From Gaeumannomyces sp. JS-464 (Eukaryota; Ascomycota; Sordariomycetes; Magnaporthales; Magnaporthaceae), in the NCBI GenBank assembly GCA_002197995.1, contig NGZR01000002.1, positions 8,122,001 through 8,186,000 of the forward strand: a stretch of 64,000 nt of DNA, read 5' to 3'. Position 1 is the first letter of the stretch; every line of letters starts with the position of its first letter. The translations under genes were made by a program, and so were the position numbers. Positions 383-19,745 of the stretch are shown piece by piece. The notes under the pieces are model-generated. The model ran no database searches. It was given only the letters and a program-made list of their open reading frames with translations, and was not told the DNA's origin.

Positions 383-1252
383 CTAAGACTCTGCACCATC
401 GACGACTATCTGCACAGGATGGCACTCTGAAAAGTCCTTCGCCCTGTCCTGCTCCGTCAGGAACTCCAATTCCCACGGGCCAGCCCCGGCTTTGTCGAGC
501 TCTCCCTCCCCATCGTCCTCATCATCGTCCCCGACGCCGTACTTGCCACCACTCCGGTGGTCGAACTTGACCTTCCCACCCAGCCTGCTTTTGATCCTGA
601 TGGCCTTGTACGCAAATAGGACCTTGTTCACCGCCGTCCCGCTCACACCGCCGTTTCGACCGGCCTCGAGCTCAAGGTGCAGGCCGGCCGGCATCGGGAA
701 GCCGCCAGCCGCGCGGGGGGCCCCGACGGTCAACCCCGGCCCGTGCCTGGTGCTCCCCAAGGTGTCCATCGCGAGGTCCGTCGCGACCTTGAGGCCGGTG
801 ATCATGTACACCCTGCGTCTCCCAAACACCGCGTTCTCGAGATAGTTACGCACGCGGGGCGACGCGCCGATGCTCGCCGCGACGAAGTCGTCCGTCGGCA
901 GGAACTCGGTGGTCTCGAGGAGGCTGCAACGGTACGACTCTGACCGATCACGGTTGAAGTTGTACACGAACCCGCCCGCCTCCGCCTGCCCCAGAGCGCT
1001 GGCGTTCGCTCCGGCCCCGGTTATGCTGAGCCCCGCGGCGCCGCGGACGCTGCTTCCGCTGGTAGCCGAGAATTTGGAGATTGCGCTGCTGTTGCACAGT
1101 TCGGTGGGGATTGGCAGGCGTTCCTGCTGGTTGAGGGGCCCGCTCAGGCCGAAGCTGCCGATGTCACGGTAGATGCTGCCAAGCCGGGGCGCCGTCTCGC
1201 TCTCCGGGTTGATGTCGAGGTTGGGTGCCTGGAAATAGTAGAGTTTAGGCAT
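383..1252 (-). CDS. gasdermin-like pore-forming protein (HET-Q1/RCD-1 type candidate)
   Basis: Single-exon gene of 289 residues with no signal peptide. Residues 1-225 have alternating beta-strand character with a Gly/Ala/Ser-rich stretch at about 65-95. A strand with the core VYMITGLKVA sits at 148-157, where gasdermin N-domains carry a comparable 'YxVTxxL' strand, and FAYKAIRI lies near 213-220. Residues 226-240 form a basic linker (KVKFDHRSGGKY), followed by a highly acidic stretch and a tail of about 50 residues. In fungi, gasdermins are short proteins of roughly 250-300 residues kept inactive by a small C-terminal tail; removal of that tail by a linked protease lets the N-domain permeabilise the plasma membrane in allorecognition cell death. 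The subtilisin gene lies 465 bp upstream on the same strand, which is the known pairing. The family call rests on length, pattern and context, not on a profile search. The alternative is another fungal protease-associated domain of unknown function. Confidence 0.6.
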   Translation of the reverse strand: MPKLYYFQAPNLDINPESETAPRLGSIYRDIGSFGLSGPLNQQERLPIPTELCNSSAISKFSATSGSSVRGAAGLSITGAGANASALGQAEAGGFVYNFNRDRSESYRCSLLETTEFLPTDDFVAASIGASPRVRNYLENAVFGRRRVYMITGLKVATDLAMDTLGSTRHGPGLTVGAPRAAGGFPMPAGLHLELEAGRNGGVSGTAVNKVLFAYKAIRIKSRLGGKVKFDHRSGGKYGVGDDDEDDGEGELDKAGAGPWELEFLTEQDRAKDFSECHPVQIVVDGAES

Positions 1253-1717
1253 TCCGACCTAGTATCTCTCTTGGTGAGCCGTCGGCTTTACTCGAGAGCT
1301 TCTCGTTAGGCAGTCTCACAGTCCAAGACCGGAAGCTAGAACCGGCTCGCTCGTTTATCGTACTCTTTGTGTGTGTGGCTGTTATGTGAAAGGAACAGAA
1401 AAAAAGCAAATGTGGAAAACCAGAAATTTCTGTAAAAGGCGGGGGTCCTGAGAAAAGACCATGGATGCGTAAAGGAGGGTAGGAAAGGGGCTTGGTTCCT
1501 GCAGTCAGTCACCTGATTCCTCCTCTGACACTCATTGGACGCCTTACCAGACAGGCGTCCTCCTGTCAAGCCATACCTCATAGCTGAGACATGGAAGCCC
1601 ACGGCCCGCCGCATATCGCCGATTGGTGGTGGTGGAAAACATGGTCGCAAGCTCGACTCTCCCCCGTGTCGGCAAAGCACTCTCTAACCAAGTGTTCTTG
1701 CTAAAAGACGACCGCCA
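1253..1717. other. spacer between protease and gasdermin-like genes
   Basis: 465 bp holding the terminator of the protease gene and the promoter of the gasdermin-like gene, both minus strand. Neither an open frame with protein-like composition nor a repeat is apparent. Confidence 0.5.
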
Positions 1718-4700
1718 CTACAAGTACGCCCCGATGGAATTCTCGATCCACGCTTTAGTATATCTGACCTGGAACCAGGCCCAGTGCATAACCCAGATGT
1801 AGTCCGACGACGGCCCTCCGCCAGGGCCTTCGTTCATCCTGCCGAGGAGGTTCCTCATGTAGTCGGCCCTGTGCATGTTCCGCCACTGCTCGTCGGTCAA
1901 GAAGCCCCTCGCGTAGCCCATGACGACGGCCGCAATTCCCGCCGCCACGGCCGCGGCGCACGAGGTCCCGGTCATCGCCACGCTGCCGCTCTCGTCTGCG
2001 CTAGGAATGCCGCCCTTCGGCATCAGCGCCGGTGGCCACGCCGAGACAACCCCCTCCCCCATCGTCATGAGCCTCATGTTGTCCATGGGCCTGGGAGTGA
2101 ACCGGGACGGGTTCCCGAAGCCGTCTGCCGAGTGGACGCAGATGACGTCCGGGTCCCTCGCCGGCCACGCCACGCCGCCCGGGAGGTTCCGGCCGTCGTT
2201 GCTGGCCGCGGCGAAAAAAAGAATGCCGTTGTCCGAAGCATTTTTTATCTCGCGACCGAGATCCGGAACCTTCCCTCCAAAGCCGAACGCCATCACGATG
2301 ATGTCCACTTTCCATTCCGTAACTGCGTGGCGGATGGCCTGGGGAGCGCGGCTTGTCAATCTCCTGGTCATTCCGCCTGATCTGGGAGCTGCGCTCGTGG
2401 CCTACCTGGGCGATTCTTGTGGGGGTTTCTTTCACGTCCGGGTTTCTACTGAACACCCGGGCCACATGAATGATTGCCTCCGGCGCGATCTTGCGGAGCA
2501 GGATGGAGAGGTGCGTGCCGTGACCTGCCTCGTCCCTCCTCTCCTCAGGATTGCCTACCCAGCTCCGATACTTGATACGCGGCTCAAAATCGTAGCAGTC
2601 CTCTTGAGCCCCGGACAGTTCCAGACCGCTGTCGAGGATAGCGATCTTTACCCTCTTGTCGTCCGAGGGTGCGCCTTCCCTCAGATCTTCGATGCGTTCC
2701 AGGACGCCGTGGTGCCACTCGAACCACCGATCTGCGCTCGACCTCCTGGGCCGTAGAGAATCTGTCAGCACTTTGGGCTCCACAGCGGCCAGTAAGTGAA
2801 AACCCAACCAACGTACTTCTCCGCCATCGGGAGCCCGTGATCTTGCCCGCAGAGCGATACGTCCCGATCCCACGCCCACGGGATCCCACCTTGTTCTGGC
2901 TGCGCCCTCCTCAAAGTTGAGAAGCTCGTCGCAGGCGCACTCGCGGAAGGCGCCTCTATGAACTCGTCATCACGCGGCTTGCTGATCTGTTCAGCACCTC
3001 CAAGTCCGAGTTGGAGCGCTAGAGGGTGAACTATGTTCGTGAGGATGTGGTGTCGAATCGGCCCTTCCTCAGACATTTGTTCCTGCCGGAGGTTCGGGAG
3101 CGGCCCAGCCTCAGGCACGACCTGATCGTGTGCCTGAGCCCCGGCGTGAGAAATCTCGTGCCACGGCAGCATCTCGTTTTCTCCAGCGAGCTGAGCAGCT
3201 GCAGGGCCGCGATGTGGTCATCGTTGCAGCGCCTCGATAAGATTGGGGAGTCTGAGCGGGGAAATTGGCTGCCGGTGACTATTTCCAGGAGCATGATCCC
3301 GAGCGCCAAGATGACGGGGTGTCGGTGTGACTGCATATGCGGTGGCGGCCCGGCCTGGCCTTGACATTCGGTGAGACGTACCGACAGGTAAGGCGAGGAG
3401 AGCGTCGGGCGATCGGAGTCTTGCGCCCTGGCCAAGAAGATCCTGCTGCTGCTCCAGCTGTCTCGGAGCCATGACCCTGGGTAGTACCGCAGAGCTGAAT
3501 CGGCGAGAGAGTAACAGAGCAGATGTTGCTCCTCAGGTGTGTAGGTAAGGATATTGAGACCCGGTTCGGTGCCCCCAAGAAGACGACGCAAAGGTAGGAT
3601 ATGCTCATCGTATCGCCTTTTGAGGTCAATGTCTGGCCGGAGGTGCCATAGTATGCCCCTCTCCACCAGGAATTTGACAGTGAGGTAGTTGCTGTCTTTG
3701 ATCCATCGGCAAATGTCCTTGTCCGCTGCCACGCGCTCCCCGTCTGGTAGCTCTCCTGGCCTGCTCTATTGTTAATTGTCTGCACTCTGCGTAAAACCGC
3801 GGGGCATGCCCTAGCTTCCTCCCTAGCCCCATCTCTTACCTGCCATCTTCAACCTCGACCACGATCTCCTTCCACTCCCTCCTGTCCTCGCAAATCTGCA
3901 GGAGCAGCTCAAACGATGGGCTGCCCGGCGCCACCTGACCGGGGCTTTTCAGACCAAGTCTCACCTCTTTGGCTTGGCCAGCCTCGGAGGCCTGCCGAGG
4001 ACAGGCGCACTGCCAGTGATCTTTTATGAGTTCATATACCTCGTTGGCGGCGTTGCGGACGCCATGGCTTGGGTGCTGCGAGAGGCTAAGGCAGGCCGCA
4101 CCGGAACCTGTTGGGGCTCCGTAGCCGCAGTAGATATCCTGAAGGTGCCTCCGGGCCTCTTTGACCCTCCCCAGAAACTTCCGGCGCTTGCTCGAGAGCC
4201 TTATCTCACTTCCGCGGAAGATTTGAATGCCACTAGTGAGCGACCTGAGCCGTTCGAGGAGCGCGGCATGCTGTTCGGTTGGCATTGTGAAGAGCTCTGA
4301 GCACTGCAGAAAACCGCCTAGTTTGCGCGAACGAATGTCCTGGGCTAGCGCCCGCAGCCGTGGGAAATTGTCTATACCGGCCAAGACCGCGGCATCCTAA
4401 AACAGGTCAGTTTCGTTCTGAAGACAGCCACGTTGTTCAGTGTGAGCTCATCTTGCCTCGTTGGTCTCGTAAACATATGCCTCCACGGGGCCGGACTCTT
4501 CGGAAAGCGGGTCTCCAAAGCCTTCAGAAAGCCCACAATAACATCATCTCGCAGCCCCGGGGACCATTCGCCCTTGGAACGGAATATAGCCAGCCCAATG
4601 TTGACGATGTCCGAGTAGCAGTCATCAGCGTCACGTCTCAGTGCTTCGTGTTTGTCTTCGCGGATCCCATCTCTGCACTCTTTCGCAAGGGCCGCGAACG

Positions 4701-4737
4701 CCGGTGTGGTCAGACTTAGGTGGACCAGGTACCACAT
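1718..4737 (-). CDS. DUF7580 + subtilisin (S8) serine protease, HET-Q2-like
   Basis: Multi-exon gene. Supported exons are 4396-3840, 3760-2998, 2953-2406 and 2338-1718. The introns are 79, 44 and 67 nt, with donors GTAAGA, GTGCTG and GTAGGC. A first exon inside 4737-4400 is less certain. The N-terminal half matches the fungal DUF7580 pattern, with a 'WQCACP' element, then a 'YLTVKFLVERGILW' block and a 'HPVILALGIMLLEIVTG' block. The C-terminal half is a subtilisin with an intact triad: Asp in AILDSG (codon 2631-2633), His in GHGTH (2520-2522) and Ser in GTSCAAA (1961-1963), plus the oxyanion Asn in AASNDG. The product is about 900 residues. Downstream lies the gasdermin-like gene, so the likely job is proteolytic activation of that protein. 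One base appears to be missing near 3101-3106; with it restored the four exons sum to 830 in-frame codons. Start and exon 1 are unsure; the protease call is firm. Confidence 0.88.
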
Positions 4738-4799: not shown

Positions 4800-6891
4800 A
4801 TGGACGTCTTTGACTGGGTGCGTCTTCGAATTTTCAGCTCGTGGTATCCTTCCAGCGACATGCGGGGTAGATCTGTCGCAGGGTGTGGTAGACGAGGGGC
4901 AGCTAGGCGCTTCTGGGCGAGGTCAGGCTGGCATCCAGCTGGGCAGCCCGAGGACCGCACCTGCGTTCGACCAGCATCCTCGAGCGAGCCGACACCAGAA
5001 CAGGAAGTCAACCTCTTCAACTCGGCGGGAACTCTCTTGCCTGACTATGGTATAAGTATAACTCTGCGACGAGACCGTACAAGCTGAAGTTCCCTGTTCT
5101 CCGGGGATGGGACCGCCGAGCGGCCTCGGACAGGGCGCACTCAGCCGGAGCAACTGTACCCTCCTTGCACTGAGATGTGAAGACTACCTAGATTACCTCT
5201 CTGAAGTGGAGAAGCGTGACAGGGCCGGCTTCTTCTGCTGCTGCGGCTTCTGGGCCTCGGTGCAACTTCCGAGTACGGCAGGAGCACGCGGATCAGAGTG
5301 AGCGGGCACGGCGACGGGTTGATGGATGCGAGACTGGAAATTTTTACGCAACTACGCTCCATCCTAGAGCGGCGCTTCTTGTCACTGTGCAGAGACCTGG
5401 GCCGGTAAGTATAGAATCACTGGATATCCTAGCAGTGTGGATACTTGAGTCTCTGATTCCTCCCCACTCCTCCAGAGCTCGCTGGACAACCACAAGAGTC
5501 CGAGGTTGCTTCAACAACGAGTATTGAGGATATCAGTCAAACGCTTCATTTGGAAGGGCCAGAAGCCACTGCTTCCTACGACTCCCTTTCCTCCTCCTCT
5601 GGTGATGAGGCTGACGGCTACGATCAGGCTACTCGTAGACGGCTTGCTCTTCGCGCCCACATCGAGGACACGATAGAGCGACTACAAGGGCACGCCGTGG
5701 GGCTCGAACAAGCGGAGACAAACAAATTGGAAAGAGAAGTGGATCACATGCTCGGGAAGCCGGAACTCCTGTCCGTGGGGCAGACCAACGACGACTCTCG
5801 TTTCTGGGCCTTGGCCCGTCAAAGCGCCTCTACGGCCGTTTTGCAAAACAGGATTTTTGAGACGTTGTCCCGACGAAAGGCCAGGCTCCAGTATCTACGG
5901 GGGGCAAGGCTGCACGGCGGAAAGGGGCCACCCGCGGTTAAGGCGCCGCGAGTTCTGCGGGTCTCGGTCCCAGGGCTCCATATTCAACAGCGAGAGGCCG
6001 AGGGCGGCGCTGACCGCAAGGGGAAGGGGCCGGCCTCGCCCGGCCCCGCCCATCTCCGCTTGCCTTCGCCGCCGGACATAGTCGATGGCCATTTCACATG
6101 CTTTTACTGTGGCGATGACCGGCTTTCATCCGAAGAGGCAGAGCCAAGCCGCTGGGTGTAAGCGAAGAATATAGAATATGGGCGAGCCCGCCGCAGACCA
6201 TCAGTCCGTGGGATAGTTTGTTTGCCATGCTGACACTCTCACACAAGTCACCATATTATGCAAGATTTCCGGCCGTACTTCTGCACAGTCGAGCGCTGCG
6301 ACGCTCCGCTCGATGTCCCGACTACTTTCGACGGCTTGGTGGAGCACCTGCAGACACACATGCCCGTTAGGTACCACCTCGCCATGCCGGACGGCAGCTA
6401 CAAGGAGTTCGAGAATGAGGCCGACTATGACGACCACGCGGGGAAAATGCCCGAATACAGCTACATGACCCCCGACGCCCTCGACACTATGAGGGCTTTC
6501 AGCCGTCGTCGTAGTGTCTTCAAACTTACCGCCTGCCCTCTCTCCGGCTGCTCCCCACCCAAATTTCCTGACGGGGTCGACGGTACAGATACACGGGAAC
6601 ACCAGAGGCAGCTGATTGCCCACTTGCAAAGACACATGCTGGGCATCGCCTTCTCCCAGACGAACCTGTACCGTGACAACACTGCCCCAAAAGCAGTTAC
6701 CCGGCAGCCTTTACGTCCGCAGTGGCAGGAGCAGGAGCCACAACCGCAGCCAAAAGTGCAGTTGCGACCACCCCAGGAATGGCACCCACATCGACAAAAT
6801 TATCCACTCGCGCGTGTCCCTCTCGAGACCGCAAGCACGTGAGTATTGATACTGATTCTTTGTTTTCTCTGCTAGGAATTTCAATCTTTAG
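4800..6891 (+). CDS. acuF-type C2H2 zinc-finger protein
   Basis: Last exons are clear: an exon ending at 6157, then 6248-6838, then 6876-6891. Introns are 6158-6247 (GTAAGC...CACAAG) and 6839-6875 (GTGAGT...GCTAG). The junction at 6157/6248 rebuilds a W-V-H-H-x-M-Q-D-F-R-P-Y-F-C block. The Cys/His pattern gives two adjacent fingers (FTCFYC...HH, then YFCTVERC...EHLQTH), typical of the fungal 'oxidoreductase acuF-like C2H2' family. Upstream are a helical, charged region (5550-5960) and an acidic-serine patch. The family's N-terminal 'DE-x-QLG...' block is recognisable near 4890-4930, but frames change several times between 4800 and 5550. The start and first exons are therefore approximate, and the 4800 start is only the first plausible ATG. 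The gene is divergent from the subtilisin gene. Its function is unknown beyond probable nucleic-acid or protein binding. Confidence 0.6.
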
Positions 6892-7948
6892 ACGGAAGAC
6901 GGTGTTGCAGCCGGGCTAGGTTGCTTCTCCGCTGTTGGCGTGACATTGGCTCCCCAGCTCGAGAGTCAACAAAACCCCCCGCATTGTTCTTACTTTACTA
7001 ATAGTCATTTTATAAAGCCCTGCAACCATTAGCTCCGACCACGAGGCATGGTCAATCTTTATCAATAGGGGCTCGGTTGGGGATGGAAGCAGCGGAGGAA
7101 CTTCGCGACCTAGCGTCCTAGAATCAAGCGTCATGGAATGGTTAGATGACCAAGAGAAAAGTACCGTGCCAGCGGCCCTACTATCCCGCGCCGCGGCGTC
7201 CAGGACCCCAAGTCAATGCGGAGAGGAGGCTGAATTTAGGATGACAAAGTTGCTAGAGGCTCTGGGCTTTGGAGGGACCACGGGCGCATCGTTTTGGATT
7301 TCCCGAGAAATTAATTGGCGCGGCGCTCCGTAGTTCCCGCTCACCCCCCGGGGTCCGGACCCTGGAGAGAAGGATCGCCAAGGGAAAGCCCTCCGGATGG
7401 TCCTTCTGGTCTTTTCGCAGTAAATGGATTTCTTTAGCGGACAAGCTTCAACACTACTTGCTTCATCCCCTTGGTTCTGCTTCTATCTGATTGTGCCATC
7501 TCCCACGAGGCCCTCCATCGTCTGGGTTGGGACGTCTCTCATCAACAAATGAGAAAGATCTTTGGGCAGTGAGGTATGATGGCCGCGTCTCATTGGGCAC
7601 TTCATATGAAGAAAGAAGTTGATTATCGCAGCGGTTGCTATTCTGTACCAGGTATCATATCACACACTCTCTCCCCATGCTCGACCGTATGCCATCCCGC
7701 CCCCTTATTCACCGCTCTAGACGCCAAACATGCAGGAAAAGAAAAAGCTTGTAAACAATAAAAACTTGCTCATCGACCAAAACAAGAAAACGGCCACGAA
7801 CGCGGTGGCCCATGTCTATACACTATCGTTGCCTCCTTCCTTCCCCCGTCGCGCTCTCCGGATATCGTAAAGCTCTCCTCCCGAAAAAAAAGTCTTTGTG
7901 AAACGAAAAAAGCACCACTGGTTCCCCCTAATTAACCCTCCTCTCCCC
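6892..7948. other. convergent intergenic region
   Basis: Lies between the 3' ends of the zinc-finger gene and Tra1. It contains A-rich stretches near 7740-7790 that would act as Tra1 3' UTR/poly(A) context. No gene is recognised. Confidence 0.5.
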
Positions 7949-10900
7949 TCACAGGTACGGCATCCAGAGCGCATCGCAGAGCGCCAGGTTCGTCGGCGCC
8001 ACCGCCTTGCTGATCAGGTCAATCACCGTCTGCGTCGCCGGCAGGTTACCTACGGGCGCCTGCGCCAGGCTGACCGCCTTCTTGACGATCATGTCGCTGT
8101 TGGTCTGCACCGTGTCGCGCAGCTGCTGCTCCGTCAGCACCCCCGTCCGGTGGCTGCTCGTGAACCAGAACATGACCTCGTCGCGCACAAACAGCGTCAG
8201 CGCGTGCTCGAGCTCGTGCTCCGGCTCCGTCAGGCACCGCGCGATCGCCATCATGGCCGCGCTGAAGATGCCCTCGGTCGCGAGCGGGCCCATCAGCGTC
8301 TGCAGGTTGGGCGTGAGCCTGAACGGGACAGGTTCCGTGTTAAGGAAGATGGGCCGCTGCGGCGTCATGAACGACATCAACTCCGAGCCCCAGATGTTGC
8401 CCGAGCCCCTCGCAATGTTGATCTTGTGCGGGTAGCGCTTGTCGATGTAGAGTATGTACGTCATGAACGTGAGCGCCGCCAGCTGGTACGAGAAGCGCCG
8501 CCGGAACAGCCAGAACTCGGCAAAGTCCGGGTACGCCGCCTGCACGTACTCGAGCGCCACCGTGTGCGGCACCCACTTGTCGCGGATTGCCGTGAACACC
8601 TCCAGCCGGGCCGCTGTGTGCTGCTCCGAGTTCTTCTGTTCAGACGTAAAATAGTCTCTGGTTAGCCATTGTTGCGTCTCAAACTCCAACCCAAAGCCAT
8701 GTCCACTTACAACTCCTGGTTTGGTGTCCACAAGCCCCCGCAGCCTGTCCATGGTGAACATGACCGCCTCGTCCTTGGACATGCCGTTGCGCCGGCAGTG
8801 GTCCTCGTACATGCCCTGCAGCGTCACGTAGGTCGTGTCCTCCTGCACGATGCGGATGTGCGGCGCCAGCGGCACCATGAGCGGGAGCGTGAACTGCAGG
8901 TCCCGCTTTCGGCTCTCCTTCTTCCTGCCCAGCCTCACGTTGAGCTGGCGGAACAGCTGCAGGATACGCTCCTCGCGACGGCAGTGCCTGGCCGCGGGGT
9001 GCTGGATCGCGAAGCAGTGAACACTGCCGTCGTGGCCGCGTATCTTGAGCCGCCGGTGCGACCCGCCGATCGTCCGCACCAGGTCCACGTTGGGCAGGAA
9101 CCGCTCGATCCGGACAAAGTCCTGGTTCCTGTCCTTGTGCTGCAGGTACTGCCCCGGCACCTCCACGTCATCGAATTTCTGGTAGCGGAACTCGCTGAGG
9201 TGCGGCGAGAACGACTCCAGGTTTGCATGGCAAATCCGCCTGTCGAGTTTCTCCTCGAACTTATCGCGCCACCTTCGTAGCTTCTGGATATACTCGTACA
9301 TGGTCGGTTTCACCTTTACGAATTCAGCTTCAAACGTCGGGCGCGTGTGAGGCGGCAATATCGTCTCAGCGAAGCGCGTGATGTTTGTTTCTGTCGGTGC
9401 CGGCAGTTTGACGTCCTTGGCGTACGACGTTGGCATGCGGCTAACATAGGCCAGGCCGTCGTTCAGGAGCGCCACGATGAGCCGGTACGCATCTTCGTCC
9501 GGCGGGCACTTGAAGTTCTTCTGAATCTGGTCCACCATCGTCTCCATCGACAGCGCCAGTAGCGGGAACGCCGTCTTGAGGACGCTCATGATCTCCTCGG
9601 TCAGCTCCCACGGCGGCTTCTTCTGGACTCCGCCCGTTTGCTGCTGATCACTAGGAGCTGAAACGCCGTTGGTCGCAGTGGGTGTTGCGGCTGCTGCTGC
9701 CGCTGCGGCGGCGGCGGGATTCGGGGGTGCAGGCGTGGACGACGACGAGTTCTGCGGCGCGGGCGTCGATGCAGCGCCCTCGCCCTCTGCCCCTTCACTC
9801 TTAACCTGTTCGCCATTGGCCGTGCCCGGCCTCGGCGTGCCGGATTCTGTCTTTGCAGAATTGGACGCGGGGGTCTCGGCCCTGGCCTGCGATGGCGACC
9901 CGCTGGGCTGCTTGTTCGCGGCAGCCGCCGCGTTGGCAGCCTGCAGCTTCTGGCGCTGGAGCCTCTCCTTCGCCTCCTGGGTCTTCTTGATGATCACCAT
10001 GTCCTCGCGGTTAGTGCGGAGCTGGAAATAGAGCGCCTGCGGGTACGACTTTGCGATCTTAAGCAAGATGGAGTGCACCCGGACCGCCTCCTTGTGGCCT
10101 AGGCCCGTCAGGAGCTGCGGGATAAAGGTGATCCAGTACCACGTAGGTGTGTCGCCCTTGAAGTCGTCAAATCCGGCGGCGATGGTACCCTTGGAGTCGT
10201 CGAGGCTGAGCAGCCAGAGGATGCGCGAGAGCAGCTTGCGCGACTTGGCGCTGCGGTAGCTCCCCGCGGCCTGCAGGTACGAAGTAAGTGCCTGACGGGC
10301 CGACTGCAGATCTGTGGGCTCCTCCTTGAAGCGACGCTCGTTGAAGTAGCCCCACTCGGCCCAGGCTTTTGCTGCGGTGATATCGAAATACAATGCCGTG
10401 CCGTAAGCGTGGTCTGCCTCGTCCTTCTGCTTGAGCTTCTCGAGGAACATGCCCTTGAGGGTGTAAAACTCTGCCTTTTGCGGAGCACTAAAGTAGTTGA
10501 GATTAGTGTTGTTGATCACCTCGAGGCCGCTCGTGAGCTCGTCCGGATTCTGGAAGTGGCACTTGGCCTGTTCGCGCAGCTTCAGGAATGCTTCCTGGAT
10601 CTCGATGTTCGGCAGCAGATAGATGCGACTCAGTTGACCCACGCAGACCTCGGGAAGGCTGTGCTTGCGCGCCACGTGCGCGAACCGGTTGATGATCCAC
10701 GCCGTCTCGTGGTAGCCCCGGTACGCAAACGTCGACCCGCCCGTCTGCTGGTTTTGCTGCGGCAGCAGCGGAATGTACGTGCTGTTGATGAGGCCGAAGA
10801 TGTGCTGCCTCCACGTGACCAGGTCCTGCCACGTCGTGATGTCGTCCCACGTGTTGGGCAGCCTATCGCGCCACGCGCCGAGGAGCAGTTTCAGCTCGCT

Positions 10901-13900
10901 GGACTTGTTGTCCAGGTTCTGCAGCGACGTGCTTGCCAGGCTCGCGCAGATAACGCTAGCATCGTGCAGCTCAACCAACTGCTGGAAGTTCTGCAGGAGC
11001 GGGATGTGCGCGGCCGTGAAGCGGCGAGGCAGCTGGTGCCACTTCCTTATAGATAGCTGTATGGCCTCGTCGCACACCCGTGTGAACTCGGGAAGGCCCT
11101 CCTGCTTGCTGTGCAGCTTGAGCAGAGACATGAAGGCCTGGAAGAAGGCCCTCCTCGGCGTCGGCGCGTCCATAACACCCTTGATGAGGTTGTCGAGAGC
11201 CTCGCGGTGCTCCTGGTTTGTCCACATCTCCGTGTTCCTCCACGCGCACTCGAGCAGGAGATCTTGGAAGTTCTCGTGCTTGGCAAAGTCCTGCAGAATG
11301 TCCCACTGCTGCAGCTTCTGCGCGCAGAGCACCCAGTGGTCCTCCCAGAGCATGTACTCGGCCTGGGAGAAAGGGATCACGCCCGTACGCGCCTTGATCT
11401 GGGCCGCCTCGTAGCCCTTTTGCGCCTTGTCCCACATGCCGTTCTGCTCATACGAGAGCGCCGAGTTTGTCTCGAGGAACTGGCAGCGCCTCCGCCACGT
11501 GCCGTAGAAAAGATCGTCCTCCTGCAGCAGCGCGTAAAGTTCAGTCAAGGCGTCAAGATTGCTCTCCCTAACATTGGCCGAGTCGACCTCGGGCAGGACC
11601 GCCGACTTCTCCAGCTGGCAGAGCGCCGTGTACCAGGCATCAAAGGTCTTAGCCTCGTACTTGAGCACATGCGGCGGTATCTTGCACTCGGGCCATGCCT
11701 TCGCCGCGCCCTCCAGAAGGGACTGTACTACGTTCGGCCTCTTGTCTATCTGACGCGCGTGGAAGTCCTTGGTGAGGAGCTGCACCATCCCGCGCTCGAG
11801 CTCCCCCGCTCCTCCCGGAGGGTCGCTGCCCAGTACATGGGGAACAGGGCAACCCAGAGCTGGTGCGCGAGGGCAGGGTCGGTGTGCTGCAGCTGGGACA
11901 GCGGCTCGATGATGTCGCGGACCCTCACGTCGCCGAGCTCCGCGACGAACTTGCGGTGGCGCGCCATGAGGCTGTCGTACTTGTCGTCCGCCATCGTGCT
12001 GGGCTCCCTCGGGTCCTTGGCGTAGTTGTTGAACCGCTGCGACACAGGCATGATGCGGAAGTCCTCCTGGTGCAGCTGCGTCGGCGTGTTAAGCTCGACC
12101 GCGCCCAGCAAGAGCTGCGTCGCCTGGCTGAGCCAGTACGACTCGGCCAGCGTGTCCCAGTTCTGCGACTTGATGACGTACCCGAGCCGCACCGTCGCGA
12201 CCTTGGGCAGGCTCTTGTCGAAAATGGCCATGAACCGGTTGCGCATGTCGACATCCTGCGCTCTGGTGCCGATGAGGAACGCATGCTCGAGCCGCACCGT
12301 GAGCTCGGTGTGGGCGATCTTGGGGTCTTCGTAGATGCGGATGACCAGCTCCAAGAAGCGCTGCAGCATCGTCGGGTCCTGGCGTTGCTCGAAGGACAGC
12401 ATCTTATGTAGCACAGCGCACTTCTCCTTAAGCGTAGGCCAGGTGCCCTCGGAGCGGAACACCCAGTTCTCGACCATCTTGAGAATCATGTCGCACAGGG
12501 GGATGGTCAAGGACTTGTCGACCAAGGACGCGAGCACACTAAGGAACGGCCGCCTGTTGTCGCCAAGGATCTCCATGCGCTTGGCCACGACCTCGACGGC
12601 CTTCAGGATGAGGCCGCTCTGGATCTCGAGATCGTACGGGGCCATCTCGATGACCGACGCATCAGTGGGCCGCTGGCCCATGCTGATGCTCATCTTGGCC
12701 TGGAAGTGCGAGACGTGCTCGCGGGCCAGCTTGACCTGCAGCGACTTCATGAGCGCCGGGATGTGCGGGTCGACCGACGACGGATCGCGGTTCCCGAGGA
12801 CCAGATGATGTTGATGCCCGACACATAGTTCGATGCGGCCATGGTCTCGGTCGCGATGCCGGAAAGGAAGTTGACCACCTCCGAGGACTGGCTCTCGGAT
12901 TCGCCCTCGGCGTCGGCGTCCTCCATCTGCACGTCATCAGACGGCACGGGGACGGCATCGAGGACACGCTTGATGGTTGGCCGGATGTCGCGGTCATCGT
13001 CGTACTTGGGGTCGGCCAGGTGCAGACAGTCTTGGATTTCGGGGTTCTCCGATTTGAGGCACTTCTCGAGCACCTTCTGAACCTTTTCCATATTTTTGAG
13101 GACCCATTCGTCCGACTTGGAGTTGAGGATGATGCGCACGACCTGTAGGGTGTTGATGATGTTGGTGAGGAACTTGTCGTCAAACTTCTCCTTGTCTGCG
13201 GGGTCCGCCGTCAGGATGCTGCTGGTCTTGTCACTAGCGAGAATGATCTCGGTGACGTTGGGGAAAAGATCGACGTCCAGGTCACCCCAGTACTGCGGTT
13301 GCAGCAGGTTGTACAGCAGCTGCATCGCACGCTTGCACATGTCCGTAGACGGCGGAGGCAGAGTTGGGCCCGGAGTGGAGGTCGTGTCCCTCGGCTTGGC
13401 GGACGGCAGCTGGTATCGCTCGCTCAGCTGAGCAATGAACTCGACCAAATACCGAACCATCTTTTGGCGGGCCATTGGCGGGATCAGGAACTCAGCCCTC
13501 TCGGTCCTGGTTGTCGGGGGCGACGACGTAGCCATCTCGGTCTCGAGTCTCCTCTTCTTGGTCGTCGGAGACTCCGACGGCGCACGGCTGGCTCCCAAAG
13601 ATGACTCTACGCCCTCGACGCGGCGCTTCTCCCACTCCCAGATGAGCCACATCATATTAAGGGCGAGCTTCTTGCTCTCGTTTGATGGGTTAGGCGGTGC
13701 CGCAACCTTACGCAACGACTGTATCAGGAGAAGCGCAAACTTCTCGCGGGCCTCGTAGAAGAGATTGGGGTGCTTGACAAGGAACTGGAAGATGCTCGTC
13801 ATCTGCTGCACGTTCTGGCCCTCCTCCGCGAGGATGCGGCGCGGAGCCACCGCCCAGACGGCGTTGCGATCATCTGGTCGCGTAGGACAACGCCTGGGCA

Positions 13901-16900
13901 GCACGGGAGCCAGGAGCTCTAGGGCCTGCGTTACGAGCACGCGACCCTCGTTTTGGCTCGTCTTGAGCAGCGCAAAGTAGATCTGGCTGACAATCTTGGC
14001 GGGCGTATCGTACTGCGCGATAAAGTACGAGATGACCACGTATGCAGCGTGCTTGTTGATGACATCCTCAAGACGGATGTACGCCCAGCCGAACCGGATA
14101 ATGTCCTTCCTGGCGTCCTGAAGGCTGGCGTGGTGATACTTGACCAGCATTGCCGACAGCTGCAGCACCTCCATGCGCGTGTGGTCGATGCCAGGCTGCA
14201 AGAGATCCTCTTGGGCGTCTCCCAAGTTCACCTTCCAGATCTTGCTGTTGATGGACTCGATCACGGTCCGGTCCATGAGGCGCGGGCCACCACCCTGCTC
14301 CGGCTGATCCCAGTAGCGCATTACGTCCATGGCCACGATGGGGTTGACGATGGAATGCAGCAAAAAGCGTTTGGTCTTCTGCGACGCGGCCCTCCCGGCG
14401 TACAAGTCCAGGCACCTCAGGACAATGGTCCTCCAGAACTCAATCGACTCGTTGCAGATGATGCCTTTGTAGATGTACGAAAGCAGCGTCTGCGTCATCC
14501 TGAACTCGTCGTTCGTAACGGCGTCTACCAGGCTGAAGAAGGCGTCGAGGTCCTTGGGCGCCCGCTCCAGGGACTTGGTCAGGATCCCGATGAGCTGCTC
14601 GCCGGCCTGGCTGGCGGCAAGGCGCAGCTCGGGGGGCAGATCGTTACTCCGCAGGTGCTTCTCGAGGTCCTTGCCGTTCTGCTTGAGCCAGGCGAGGTGC
14701 TCCCTCCGCTCCATCCAGGACTTTGAGTCCGGCCAACGGGAGAGCGCGTCGAGCACGTTGATGGTCTCGATGATGGCCGCATATCTAGTCTCGCGCCCGT
14801 CGTTGATGACGCTGCTGCAGGCCCGAATGAGCTCGTCGACGTGGCTGGCGGCGTGGTCCCGGATGGGCTGGCTCTCTGCGTCACGCAGCACCTGCGACAG
14901 AAAACGCCCGTATTTGATGTTGTCAATCTTGCCGAGCAGCAAAGCCCAGACCTGGTTAGGATACCGGTTGAGATACTTGTACAGCGGCGCCCGGAAGGGG
15001 CTGCAGTGGGTCCGCCGCAGCTTCTCCTCGAGGTCAAGGACGGTGTCGATAACACGCTCGAGGAACACGTCCGCGGCAGGTGGAAGCAGGTGGAAAATAT
15101 TAAAGACCGCTGCTATGACCTTCATCGTCGGGTGCTGCTCAAAGAATGTGAAGGAGATCTGCTGCAGGGACGCAGGGTCGACGAGAGACTTGGTGTGCTC
15201 CAGCAGCCGCGAGCCGATTTCCACTTTGAAGTACGACGTGAGGAGTCTGAGGAGTCTCGCCAGGTTATCCAGGCCGTGAACCGTCAGCTGCTTGGCGTTT
15301 TGGAGACTAGCCAAGACGGGCCGCAGGCCTGACTGAAGGAGCTCCTTGGGCAGCTTGTTGGTGGGCGAAAGCACGCCCTTCAAGGCATCGTTGGCGGCCT
15401 CGATGGTGGGCTTTGGCTCCTGATATAGGCACTTGAAAAACACAGACACAATCTTGGTACGATGCCTATCATTCGGGCCCTTGGCGAACTCCTCGAAGCC
15501 CATGGCCGTCTTGAGGATCTTGATGCACGACACCCTCAGGTTGACGATGTACTCGTGAGTGCGGAACTCGCCCGGTTTCCCGGCCAGAGACTCGTCGCTC
15601 GCGTCGGCCAGTGCCAGAGACTCCATGAGCAGCCTATTCAGGTGGTCGTCGAACTGGACAAAGTCGCTCTTGAGCGTCATGTAGTACGTCACGGCATCGA
15701 TGTAGCCGATCTGCACCGCAAACGGCAGCGCCCGCAGAGGCTTGCCGTAGATTGGGGCGAGCAGGCGGTCCTTGTATGGCTCAATGAGCTCCCAGACCTC
15801 AGCACCCGTGGCCTTTGCGATCGTCTCGAGCAGGCGCTTGGCTGTCTCGCGAACGTGTCGGTTCATATGCGACAGCTCGTTATTCAGCGCGTGACAGACC
15901 TGCGCCATGCGGGGAAGGCGAGGTTGCGGCTGGCCCGGCTGGCTGGGCGCCGCAAGGACATCCTCCTTCTTGATGTCCTTGGTTATCCTCCCCAAAAGAA
16001 CATCCAACGTCTCCTGTGCGGACCGGCGCGTCTTCTCGGGCAGGTCCTGGGCATGTCTTTGACCACGTGCATGAGGGCGCGGATGAAGTCCATTTGCCTC
16101 GCAGCCACAAACCCATCACCCAGGTCGACTTCGGTCAAGAGGGTGTGTATTCCGAGAGTGCCGCCCATCTTGTGAACCACTCCTCCTCGTAACACCCATG
16201 ACAGAAAGCCGAGGCCAGGTGGTTGAAGAAAGGCAGACGGCCGACCTGGCTCTCCGACCCGAAGATGATTCCGGTCGTCTTGAACACCTCGCAAATTGCG
16301 CGCTGGGCGGCAGCGCGGATGTCGGGGTGCTCTGAAGCGAGTGAGTCCAGGATCGCATCGGAGAGGACCCGTGTGTCGAGAAACAGCGGACCCTCTCCAG
16401 CTTCGACGACAAAGGAAGTGTTGGACGCGCGCTTCAGCTCCTGCAGGCCCCTGCCCACCTCGATGATTGTAAAGTGGCGGCAGATGTTCATCAAGAACAC
16501 GTCCACGTCGGCGGCGTAGTCGGGCAGAGACTGGGCAAAGAAGAGCGCCTTGAGAAGTCTCTTGAGCACATTGCACTGCTCTTCGTTTTTCTGAATGGAG
16601 CGCCTGCGGTCGTTGGACTCGAACGCCGAGAAATCGCCGTCAAGCTTCTCGCCAGTAGGTCCTGGGCCTGCAGGCGCACCTGGCGGGAGACGTCGTCTGA
16701 AAGCTGGTCGATGCCTATCCTGAGCTTCACCTGTGCGATGATGAAGTGCAGGGCGTGCTTGGTGTAATACGCATCCGACTGCTTCGATGTCTGAGGGCCC
16801 TTGCCTGGCTTCGGCACCTCCATCAGCTTTTGGATAGCGAGCTCGACGCCGATATCGACCGGGAATGCCCTGTCCTTCTTGGATCCTATAAGCCGAAGGT

Positions 16901-19745
16901 CGATGCTAGACCGGTCGTCCACGTACTGCTGGAAGGTGACGGGCAGCGCGTCCGTCATGAACTTGCGGTTCCGGCCGCCGAGCTTCCCCAGAATCCTCAT
17001 CGTAGTATGCGCGTGGAAGTGGCTGTATGGGTGCGGCTTCAGGTGCTCGAACAGGGCCGTCATCAGGTCATCTATCACTGGGGCCATGATCGGGTCTAGA
17101 TAATCCGCAGTCAGGTTGTCGACACACAGCTCGAGCGTGCGCAGCCCCTGGCCGACCAGTTCCGTGCCCGCGCGAAGGGCCACCACCAGCGGTCTCATGA
17201 GGTAACTGAGATGAGGAAGCAGGTTACTCAGACGGGCAGGCACGGTCAAGCACAGCTCGACATAGAGGTCCCGCTCGATCGGCTTCCGGGCCGCCATGAG
17301 GAGGTTATTGAGCACATCCAGGAGCATCTCGAGAAGCGGCAATATCTGCTTGTAGAGGTGCTCGAACTTTCCACCACCGATGCTCCTAAAGAGAGACCTC
17401 AGCAGGAGGAAGTAATTCATAGGCTCCTCCGCGCGGGTCGAGAGGTCGATACTCTTGGTGACGATGTCCAAGACGTGTGGGAGCAGGACCGGCTCGTTCT
17501 GGGTAGCGAACAACGTGACAGCCATGAAAGCGAGCTTGAACAACCTCAGGAGAATAGACGACTTCTTGACGTCTGCTGACCCGATGTCCTCGATGCGCTC
17601 CATCAGGAAGCGGAGCAGCATGCCGCAAAAACTCGGCGAGGTGGCTTCGCTGGCGAGGAAAAACTGGGGGATGTGGAGGAGGGCATGGTGGTCGAAGATC
17701 ATCTCGTACAACCGCGGCATCTCCTGCTGGAACACCTCGTGAAAGGTGGCCGGGTCGATGCAGTGGAAGACGGTGGCGAACGTCTCGAGGAGATCTTTCT
17801 CCTCCTTTCCACTAGAAACCATGTAGAGGTTCGCCATCTCGACCGACGACGTCGAGTTCGCGTCGGGAACAGGCTTCTCGGCCTCGTAGTACCTAAATAC
17901 ATAGGCGCCTTCTCGGAAGAGCTTGACGATGACCTGCACCTCCTCGGCAGTGAAGCCGTAGCTCACATCCTGCCAGTGCTGCGGCGCCTTGGCGGGGTCA
18001 ATGACCTGCCCAGGGTTGCAGAACTTGAGTTGGTAAAATGTGTTCTTAAGCTTCATCTCATCAGATTCTTGAACAGAAACTTGTTGTCCACGACAGGGTC
18101 CGTCCCCCTGTCACGCGGGTTCGACGTCTTGATGGGCATTGCATTAAAGATGTCGATCTCGTCCCACTCCGGACGCTGGTCCTTGTGGGCGAGATAAGTC
18201 TCCTGGGTGCCCTCCTGCTTCCGGAAGGCCTCGGACAGCTTGACCGCGTTCTCGTACTGCCTGTTCATGGCGGCAAACTTGTCCCCGATGGCGTTGAGGA
18301 TCATGATGAGGTAGTGGCGGGCATCCACCTTGTTAGGCATCTTGGCAATGCACTCGGCCATGTTCAGCAGGAGCTTCGCGCTCATAGTCTGGAAGCTCGT
18401 GCCGGGGAAGGTGTCCTGCAGGTTCTTGGTGTAGACCTCGACCGTCTTGCGGATCTGCGCCGGCGAGAGGTTGTCGCGCACGTGGTGGATGAGATCCGCC
18501 AGCATACTATACGCAAGAGGGCGCATCGTCTCGTACACGGTCAGGCCGTCGCCGATTAGGGTGCGCTCCTCAAGGAGCTCGTCAATCTTGGGCAGAAAGA
18601 TCTTCCTGAAATTAAAGTTAATAATGTGCCTGATCGCGACGAGCAGCTCCTTGCGCGCGCTAGACCGCTCGCGCGGGCAGTCCTTGAGCAGGCGCACCAC
18701 GATGTCGGGGAGCGTCGGCAGGAAGTCGGTCAGCTGCTGCGAGTACTGACGCAGCAGGTACGCCAGGAAGCTCATGGTCTTAACCTGCGCCGTGATGAAC
18801 TCGCCAAACGCGGCCCGGTTCTTGATGCCCGGGCTCACGCCCGCGAAGATGGTGCCCTTGGCGGCCGCCTCGGCGTGCGCCTGCTCCTGCGCCTTGGCCT
18901 GGAGACAGAGGACGCCCTTGATCAGGGGCACAAAGGCCTTGACGTTCTGCGGCACGGTGTTGCGGTACACCTGGAAGATGGACACGACTATTATTGGGCA
19001 CTCGGACAGCACCTTGAAAGACTGCATTCCCCGGAGCAGCGGCCTCGAGTTCTGCTGTTGGTCGAAATCAGGGGCCGGCGCCACCGGCGACGCGGGGCCC
19101 GACTGCTGGAAAGTGGTCTGTGAGCTGGACGGGGTGGACGGCCCGCCCGGGGCGCTGGCGGCAGCCGAGCCGTTGTCGAGCTGCTCGTGCACGACGCGCT
19201 CCATCTGCTGAAACAGCTCCTGGATCAGGGAGAGGAAAAGCTGGACCTTGCCGGCCATGATCTTGTGCTGGTGGCGCATGATGTCGGAGATGATCTTGAC
19301 GCACAGCGTGGCATTGTCCTCGTTGTCGGTGCGGGACGAGGCCCATCAGCAGGTCGACCACCTCGTCGGCATAGGGCTCGAAGGGCTCGGCGGGGCTCGG
19401 CGTGGTCGGCAGTCGGTGCAGGATCTCGAGGATGCAATTCCGTAGCCTCTGCTCCGGCGCGGCGCTCTGAAATATGCATGGTCCCCTCAAGACGTTGATG
19501 AAGGCGGGCATCACCCGCTTGAGGAACTGGGGGTAGATGACGAGGCCCGAGGTGTAGTGGTCCAGGGTGTCGCGAAGGTTAGTCGCAGACTCTAGCTTCT
19601 GTTTCGGGTCTGTGAATATAAGGTCAGTACGGCGCGGCAAGTCGGCTGCGCGGACCGGCAGCGAGGGGGGTCATGGGACGGGAGACGCACCCGTCTCCGG
19701 AGAGACGAGCCGCTTCACGGCCTCCTCTAGCACGCTGCCCGACAT
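7949..19745 (-). CDS. tra1: Tra1 (TRRAP) subunit of SAGA and NuA4
   Basis: Activator-binding scaffold of the SAGA and NuA4 acetyltransferase complexes, about 3,890 residues, acting in the nucleus. Exon 1 (19745-19691) encodes the N-terminus, spliced over an 81-nt intron (GTGCGT...TTCACAG) into 19609 and onward, restoring the 'NLRDTLDHY' start typical of the family. HEAT-type helical repeats fill most of the protein. The FAT region is interrupted by a long Ala/Pro/Ser-rich disordered insert (about 9640-9970). A degenerate PI3K-like domain follows (about 9120-8000) with no recognisable catalytic loop, and the FATC end is ...LWMPYL at the stop. A further small intron is possible near 8646-8698 but does not fit the frame cleanly. 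Seven single-base indels (near 19334, 18055, 16650, 16172, 16050, 12800 and 11805) break the frame while protein similarity continues on both sides. Because Tra1 is normally indispensable, I treat these as sequence errors. Confidence 0.93.
9640..9970 (-). other. low-complexity insert in Tra1
   Basis: Encodes an Ala/Pro/Ser/Thr-rich, presumably disordered segment including a run of ten alanines, between FAT-region helices and the kinase-like part. Fungal Tra1 proteins vary in length at such loops. Confidence 0.7.

What the first reader, a model, noticed from the sequence alone, without database searches (positions are those of the whole stretch)
383..4737. Gasdermin-like gene paired with a DUF7580-subtilisin gene: a candidate fungal pyroptosis-like cell-death module
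Seen: a 289-residue protein with a gasdermin-like N-domain pattern and a short acidic tail lies 465 bp downstream of a subtilisin gene with an intact Asp/His/Ser triad, on the same strand. Known: in Podospora, HET-Q1 (gasdermin) is activated by the linked subtilisin HET-Q2, and fungal gasdermin genes are often found next to protease genes. Inference: this is an uncharacterised pair of that class, working in allorecognition or in defence.
Basis: partly seen in the sequence, partly recalled or inferred. Interest (0 to 1): 0.87.

Follow-up and report, generated by a model that had tools for sequence, protein, structure and literature searches.

The report
Fungal gasdermin with its subtilisin trigger
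A fungal chromosome carries a small membrane-pore (gasdermin) gene beside the gene for a protease that probably cuts it to kill the cell, and the same genome repeats this pairing at several places, which fits a known kind of fungal suicide module rather than a new one.

Summary
Window 383-1252(-) encodes a 289-aa protein; a profile built with same-genome paralogues matches only gasdermins in the PDB (RCD-1 best, E 1e-11; 6 of 6 hits). Single-sequence AlphaFold failed, so the fold is inferred from homology. The neighbour (1718-4737, 465 bp away, same strand) joins DUF7580 to an S8 subtilisin with Asp, His and Ser motifs present. In this 53-Mb genome 5 of 5 DUF7580-S8 loci have a gasdermin nearby; 0 of 29 other S8 and 0 of 14 other DUF7580 loci do. 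This is a fungal gasdermin/Q2L-protease cluster, a known kind. Added here: DUF7580 looks like a divergent pseudokinase (profile score 30.9 against kinases; 200 shuffles at most 19.4), so a pseudokinase sensor probably gates the protease. The protease gene has one frame change with no room for an intron; TRA1 nearby has one too, so I suspect assembly errors. Cleavage, killing and allorecognition are untested.

The parts
383..1252 (-). Gasdermin gene, single exon, 289 aa
   Evidence: ORF; six other loci in the own genome, E 6e-41 to 0.06; profile hits only gasdermins in PDB; window's own subfamily vs RCD-1/HET-Q1 alignment E 2.7e-8
590..1252 (-). Predicted pore-forming N-domain, about residues 1-221, with RLGSI...PLNQ...PIP and VYMITGLKVA motifs
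   Evidence: aligned ranges to RCD-1 and HET-Q1 chains; residues 1-240 net charge +8, pI 9.62
533..589 (-). Linker, residues 222-240, where activating cleavage is expected (F230 or Y238 as candidate P1 residues; a guess)
   Evidence: lies between the last aligned gasdermin segment and the acidic tail; HET-Q1 is cut at F238 of 278 (PMC10989679 passages)
386..532 (-). Acidic tail, residues 241-289, inhibitory role inferred
   Evidence: 17 Asp/Glu of 49, pI 4.05; tails of pI 4.05-4.06 also at L031 (two gasdermins), L032, L034 and L033
1718..4737 (-). Protease-sensor gene: N-region of unknown fold, DUF7580, S8 subtilisin; several exons; frame change 3103-3073 without room for an intron
   Evidence: Pfam; frames; same domain order in L031, L033, L034
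3840..4737 (-). N-terminal region (exons 1-2; first splice not settled); its end (about 3854-4072) matches the start of DUF7580
   Evidence: no other Pfam match; resembles L031 N-region by eye
3761..3839 (-). Probable 79-nt intron, GTAAGA...GCAG
3034..3760 (-). DUF7580 main part; kinase-like (pseudokinase) domain inferred
   Evidence: PF24476 E 6.6e-26; kinase profile similarity
1718..2963 (-). S8 subtilisin domain (start approximate); Asp and His motifs in the exon ending at 2406, Ser motif in the last exon
   Evidence: PF00082; motif positions
2339..2405 (-). Probable 67-nt intron, GTAGGC...CCCCAG, phase 0
   Evidence: L031 and L033 differ at the same place

Best explanation
A two-gene fungal regulated-cell-death module. 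The small gene encodes a gasdermin whose basic pore-forming domain is kept inactive by a short acidic C-terminal tail. The neighbour encodes a subtilisin fused to a pseudokinase-like (DUF7580) sensor that keeps the protease latent. When the sensor is triggered (signal unknown), the subtilisin cuts the gasdermin in the linker before the tail, the tail leaves, and the N-domains assemble into plasma-membrane pores that kill the cell or hyphal compartment. Shown here: gasdermin homology, S8 catalytic motifs, DUF7580 next to S8 in one gene, linkage repeated in this genome, acidic tails. Inferred: pseudokinase nature of DUF7580 (moderate to good support), latency, cleavage, tail inhibition, pore formation, biological role.
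For: Profile of window plus paralogue pieces: 6 of 6 PDB matches at E<=10 are gasdermins, best 1e-11. Other paralogues without the window's subfamily: 5 of 5 are RCD-1 or HET-Q1, best 5.7e-7. Window's own subfamily vs RCD-1/HET-Q1 alignment: E 2.7e-8, score 58.5, 150 column shuffles at most 24.1; window alone 33.2 (probability 38.7%), 150 shuffles at most 20.2. Linkage: 5 of 5 DUF7580-S8 loci have a gasdermin within 8 kb; 6 of 7 gasdermin loci lie within 5 kb of S8; 0 of 29 S8-only and 0 of 14 DUF7580-only loci. DUF7580 vs own-genome kinases: hhalign score 30.9, 200 shuffles at most 19.4, other controls 10.3-14.2. Acidic tails in the window and five paralogues. Published class: about 80% of fungal gasdermins are protease-linked, about 60% with S8.
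Against: No structure model. The window's own subfamily gives only E 0.038-0.92 against RCD-1 in the PDB search, though nothing else is hit. The protease gene has one frame change with no room for an intron and two junctions that are not settled. One gasdermin (C12:654235, L032) has no S8 within 5 kb and no DUF7580 within 6 kb. Linkage was measured in one genome; four clusters if the RIP copy is not counted, and they may share ancestry. Pseudokinase statistics are modest (hhalign E 0.0012, probability 19.5%; PDB kinases 0.015-0.23).
Confidence: 0.82

Rival explanations
1. Decaying module: the protease gene is a pseudogene and the gasdermin is no longer triggered by its neighbour.
For: Frame change between 3103 and 3073 without room for an intron; paralogues L031, L032 and L034 also have frame changes; one cluster is RIP-mutated with stops.
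Against: TRA1 in the same window, essential in yeasts by recall, shows the same kind of break: one PDB chain aligns at residues 2343-2665 to one frame and from 2667 to another, so the assembly itself is a likely cause. The catalytic motifs are all kept, and the module is not RIP-affected (TpA/ApT 0.62).
Confidence: 0.14
2. The gasdermin works like RCD-1: killing follows the meeting of two divergent alleles, not proteolysis.
For: Best PDB match is RCD-1.
Against: Linked subtilisin at 5 of 5 clusters; a repeated acidic tail, which fits the cleaved class (HET-Q1 278 aa; RCD-1 257 and 244 aa). In the passages I read RCD-1 is called an exception among fungal gasdermins.
Confidence: 0.05
3. The small protein is a different beta-rich protein and the subtilisin neighbour is coincidence.
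For: No Pfam match; AlphaFold model uninformative; the single sequence finds only two weak DNA-binding-protein matches in the PDB.
Against: Only gasdermins are hit by the profiles, shuffled controls are far lower, and linkage has P about 5e-13 for 6 of 7, or 8e-9 for 4 of 5 with duplicates removed.
Confidence: 0.02

Closest known systems
Fungal gasdermins clustered with HET-Q2-like (Q2L) S8 proteases (Clave et al. 2022, known here only through reviews PMC12881547, PMC10197012, PMC10989679)
   Same: Gasdermin with short tail next to a multidomain S8 protease; one review (PMC12881547, Fig. 6 legend) says proteases can be fused to 'other predicted kinase-like domains'
   Different: DUF7580 as the sensor domain is named in 0 papers of the searched library; whether Clave et al. 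list it could not be checked (paper not held)
Podospora HET-Q1/HET-Q2
   Same: Gasdermin of similar size (278 aa) with an RLGS...PIP N-terminus, S8 protease
   Different: HET-Q1 and HET-Q2 are alternative idiomorphs and HET-Q2 is 388 aa; here both genes sit side by side and the protease has a large sensor region
Neurospora RCD-1-1/RCD-1-2 (8JYZ)
   Same: Closest solved gasdermin by profile
   Different: RCD-1 is activated by two alleles meeting, not by a linked protease
MLKL and fungal HeLo/HELL pseudokinases
   Same: DUF7580 resembles LRRK2 and MLKL kinase domains weakly; an ORF with HeLo and a sub-threshold DUF7580 match exists in this genome (L063)
   Different: Here the pseudokinase-like domain is fused to a protease and the executioner is a separate gasdermin

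Membership tests
Fungal gasdermin | Sequence homology to the RCD-1/HET-Q1 pore-forming domain | tested here: met
   marginal for the window's subfamily alone in the PDB search
Fungal gasdermin | Gasdermin fold | tested here: inconclusive
   AlphaFold2 single sequence, pLDDT 30
Fungal gasdermin | Short C-terminal segment instead of a large C-domain | tested here: met
   289 aa, about 68 aa after the last aligned segment; inhibition itself untested
Fungal gasdermin | Membrane pores and cell death | not testable with these tools
   needs expression
Q2L S8 protease linked to a gasdermin | S8 domain with Asp-His-Ser | tested here: met
   Asp-His exon under Pfam cut-off on its own
Q2L S8 protease linked to a gasdermin | Within 10 kb of a gasdermin | tested here: met
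   465 bp; 5 of 5 such loci in the genome within 8 kb
Q2L S8 protease linked to a gasdermin | Multidomain receptor architecture | tested here: met
   DUF7580 next to S8, same strand and order, in window, L031, L033, L034; one continuous reading not shown in the window
Q2L S8 protease linked to a gasdermin | Cleaves the gasdermin | not testable with these tools
   needs co-expression
het-Q-type allorecognition system | Gasdermin and protease as alternative idiomorphs | tested here: not met
   both genes adjacent in one assembly
het-Q-type allorecognition system | Allele classes under balancing selection | not testable with these tools
   no population data
Protein kinase (DUF7580) | Kinase-like profile similarity | tested here: met
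   modest E-values, clear of shuffles; no Pfam kinase match in 11 members
Protein kinase (DUF7580) | HRDxKxxN catalytic loop | tested here: not met
   by eye in 0 of 11 DUF7580 rows; 9 of 9 kinases by pattern, two with Y for H; hence pseudokinase-like
MLKL-like / HeLo protein | N-terminal HeLo or four-helix membrane domain | tested here: inconclusive
   no Pfam HeLo match in the window N-region

The most novel reading that the evidence does not exclude
DUF7580 is an MLKL-type pseudokinase, and in this module an ancestral HeLo/HELL-pseudokinase (necroptosis-like) receptor has exchanged its own membrane-killing helix for a subtilisin plus a gasdermin, so a necroptosis-type sensor drives a pyroptosis-type executioner. 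Hints: an N-terminal MSG.EVAG.VLGA.PL-type helix in 3 of 10 fetched DUF7580 loci without S8 and at the N-terminus of 0 of 5 with S8 (my own pattern, partly from recall; some flanks only 1.5 kb), and an ORF with HeLo and a sub-threshold DUF7580 match (L063).
Probability: 0.35. Interest if true: 0.7.

Novelty: new member of a known kind. Interest (0 to 1): 0.45.

Why it matters
The 2025 review (PMC12881547, sections 20-21) names as open what controls the proteases that activate fungal gasdermins. Five paralogous clusters (one RIP-mutated) with one sensor architecture in one genome, and a testable claim that the sensor is a pseudokinase related to MLKL-like fungal proteins, give a concrete handle. 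The pair itself is an ordinary member of a large known class.

Tried and rejected
AlphaFold2 on the single sequence: unusable, so no fold search was run.

Direct PDB search with the single window sequence gave two weak matches to the same kind of small DNA-binding protein (7d; E 0.017, 0.031) in region 217-252; set aside because the profile searches do not repeat them.

Viral-contig scan: 58 pattern matches, none a relative. Pfam for the N-terminal region: nothing beyond DUF7580. Profile scan of five other S8 loci with 9-9.5 kb each (L035-L039): no gasdermin. Divergent gasdermins elsewhere may be missed, because the whole genome was searched only with the window protein.

Counts: the 7 gasdermin loci are all 9 matches at E<=10 (three are one gene). 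A further remnant in L030 (8771-8935, E 0.011 and 0.0005) was left out. C33:371310 (E 0.06) and C1:15269747 (E 0.002) are weak with the single protein but also found by the window-subfamily profile A2 (0.0017, 2.5e-5). The 19 DUF7580 loci include two under Pfam's cut-off.

Full report
What was checked. The window lies in a 53.0-Mb genome of 34 contigs (C12:8122001-8186000). Introns, RIP-type mutation (below) and a TRA1 gene closest to fungal Tra1 chains suggest a filamentous ascomycete (inference; the species is not known to me). The small gene at 383-1252(-) is one open frame of 289 codons. The neighbour begins near 4737 and ends at 1718 on the same strand.

Gasdermin identity. Pfam gives nothing. 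The window protein has six other loci in its own genome: 44% identity over nearly full length to a locus at C12:1.407 Mb (with stops), 48% over the N-half to one at C31:1.077 Mb, and four more distant ones. A profile of these (A1, 10 pieces) searched against all PDB chains returns six sequences at E<=10, all gasdermins: four RCD-1 chains (1e-11 to 1.8e-8), the HET-Q1 pore 9uv9 (1.9e-8) and the bacterial gasdermin 7n51 (0.0025). Without the window's subfamily the profile (A4) still finds only RCD-1 and HET-Q1 (5 of 5, best 5.7e-7). The window's subfamily alone (A2) finds only RCD-1, but weakly (4 of 4, E 0.038-0.92). The two subfamilies match each other at 98.2% probability, E 5e-14. Compared directly with an alignment of the three known fungal gasdermins, A2 scores 58.5 (95.2%, E 2.7e-8) against a maximum of 24.1 in 150 column shuffles, and the window protein alone 33.2 (38.7%) against 20.2. 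Those templates were chosen because the database search had found them, so the shuffles, not the E-values, are the control; DUF7580 against the same templates scores 11.3. Pairwise BLAST of the window protein with the three segments gives 6e-5, 0.002 and 0.20 in that tiny search space. The structure model was useless.

Tail. Residues 241-289 have net charge -14 and pI 4.05; residues 1-240 have +8 and pI 9.62. Acidic tails of pI 4.05-4.06 also end both L031 gasdermins, L032 and L034 and L033; the L030 tail was not measured. By analogy with HET-Q1 (278 aa, cut at F238, losing 40 residues; passages of PMC10989679) cleavage is expected around residues 222-250. The exact residue is a guess.

Protease gene. 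DUF7580 and S8 are confirmed, with the Asp-His exon under Pfam's cut-off on its own. The catalytic motifs are present. The Asp-His exon and the Ser exon are joined by a probable 67-nt GT-AG intron; window and L031 read VAQ before it and AI.HAV..WKVDIIVM after it, L031 with extra residues between, and L033 changes frame there. Between 3103 and 3073 the frame changes with no room for an intron, while the same stretch is one open frame in L031. A further change between 3046 and 2925 may be a short intron, and the exon 1-2 join is unsettled. TRA1 in the same window (ORFs between 7949 and 19279) shows the same kind of break: PDB chain 9ynu residues 2343-2665 align to ORF 12750-11746 and residues 2667 onward to ORF 11788-7949, in different frames. 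TRA1 is essential in yeasts (recalled), so indel errors in the assembly are the likely cause. I cannot exclude real damage.

Linkage. Positions collapse to 34 S8 loci, 19 DUF7580 loci (two under the cut-off) and 7 gasdermin loci. Five DUF7580 loci have S8 within 5 kb; all five have a gasdermin within 8 kb. None of the 29 other S8 loci nor the 14 other DUF7580 loci has one. Six of seven gasdermins lie within 5 kb of S8 (P about 5e-13 if independent; 8e-9 for 4 of 5 after removing duplicates). The counts of S8 and DUF7580 are lower bounds by the tool's statement, and gasdermins were sought genome-wide only with the window protein. The order is not fixed: window and C33 have the gasdermin downstream on the same strand; C12:1.40, C31 and C1 are convergent. 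The exception, L032, has no S8 within 5 kb and no DUF7580 within 6 kb.

Duplication and RIP. L030 (C12:1.40 Mb) is a 77%-identical copy of the C31 cluster over 4.9 kb, with 582 C-to-T or G-to-A against 143 reverse changes; TpA/ApT is 1.22 in L030, 0.65 in L031, 0.57 in the window. It has stops in the gasdermin, DUF7580 and S8 matches. So the cluster was duplicated as a unit and one copy was mutated by RIP.

DUF7580. An alignment of 11 members (A3) against PDB chains gives 22 sequences at E<=10: 18 LRRK2-type kinase chains (0.015-0.025), three MLKL chains (0.063-0.23) and one DOT1L fragment (0.035). Against nine kinases of the same genome hhalign gives E 0.0012, score 30.9, probability 19.5%, colinear over 137 columns that on the kinase side include HRDxKxxN and the DxWSLG helix. 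Leave-one-out scores are 29.3-33.5 (the highest without the window member); 200 column shuffles reach at most 19.4; reversed kinases 14.2; S8 13.9; gasdermins 10.3-13.1. Pfam kinase models match none of the 11 members. HRDxKxxN is in 9 of 9 kinases (Y for H in two) and, by eye, in 0 of 11 DUF7580 members. I conclude a degenerate kinase-like domain, probability about 0.8 (inference). A 564-aa ORF (L063) carries both a HeLo domain (PF14479, 51.2 bits) and a weak DUF7580 match (23.4 bits, under cut-off); a 737-aa ORF (L061) carries a kinase match (27.1 bits) and a weak DUF7580 match (24.1 bits, under cut-off). These look like links between the families.

Literature. Reviews PMC12881547 (sections 20 and 21 whole, other passages), PMC10197012 (passages) and PMC10989679 (passages) describe about 1900 gasdermins in 400 fungal genomes, about 80% near protease genes, about 60% with S8, with 18 protease architectures; [quoted passage not shown] PMC11760362 was seen as outline and abstract only. 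Clave et al. 2022 is not held. DUF7580 and PF24476 occur in 0 papers of the library; two combined searches (gasdermin with kinase-like, pseudokinase or subtilase terms) listed no paper on this pairing by title or abstract beyond the reviews. So the pair is a new member of a known kind; the pseudokinase reading of DUF7580 was not found in print by these searches.

Mechanism. Because both genes lie in one genome, the protease cannot be constitutively active against its neighbour, unlike the HET-Q2 idiomorph model; a sensor-gated protease is the simplest reading. What triggers it is unknown. Allorecognition, defence against mycoviruses or other stress responses remain open.

Noticed in passing
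window 7949-19279(-): TRA1 gene is split over frames (near 11770 by PDB alignment; further frame boundaries near 12750, 16007-16491 and 18056 not tested), suggesting indel errors in the assembly.
   Followed up: partly
L030 (C12:1402000-1411000): RIP-mutated duplicate of the C31 gasdermin cluster, including a remnant of a second gasdermin at 8771-8935.
   Followed up: yes
L031 (C31:1073000-1082900): One protease sensor with two gasdermins of different subfamilies (3896-4729 and 6964-7842), about 2.2 kb apart.
   Followed up: partly
L032 5901-8045(-): The only gasdermin without S8 lies convergent to a long ORF that looks like an ADAM-type metalloprotease (HEVGHTFGADHDC and Cys-rich region; motif recalled, not searched in Pfam).
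   Followed up: no
L034 2927-3196(+): In the C33 protease the Asp motif position seems to read IAIFYAGK instead of I.ILDSG, so that S8 may lack the catalytic Asp while His and Ser motifs remain (read by eye).
   Followed up: no
L063 1240-2931(-): 564-aa ORF with HeLo domain and a sub-threshold DUF7580 match, an MLKL-like architecture.
   Followed up: partly
L061 971-3181(-): 737-aa ORF with a kinase match followed by a sub-threshold DUF7580 match.
   Followed up: partly
L022 244-2853(-): 870-aa ORF joining DUF7580 to a PNP_UDP_1 phosphorylase domain, an effector also known from fungal NLRs (recalled).
   Followed up: no
L024, L028, L029: DUF7580 loci without S8 that carry an N-terminal hydrophobic MSG.EVAG.VLGA.PL-type stretch (3 of 10 fetched; 0 of 5 with S8 at the N-terminus; one unrelated pattern match at window 1793 discounted).
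   Followed up: partly
window 5550-6161(+) and 6258-6842(+): Two ORFs upstream of the module with Cys/His patterns like zinc fingers (by eye); Pfam gives nothing above cut-off.
   Followed up: no
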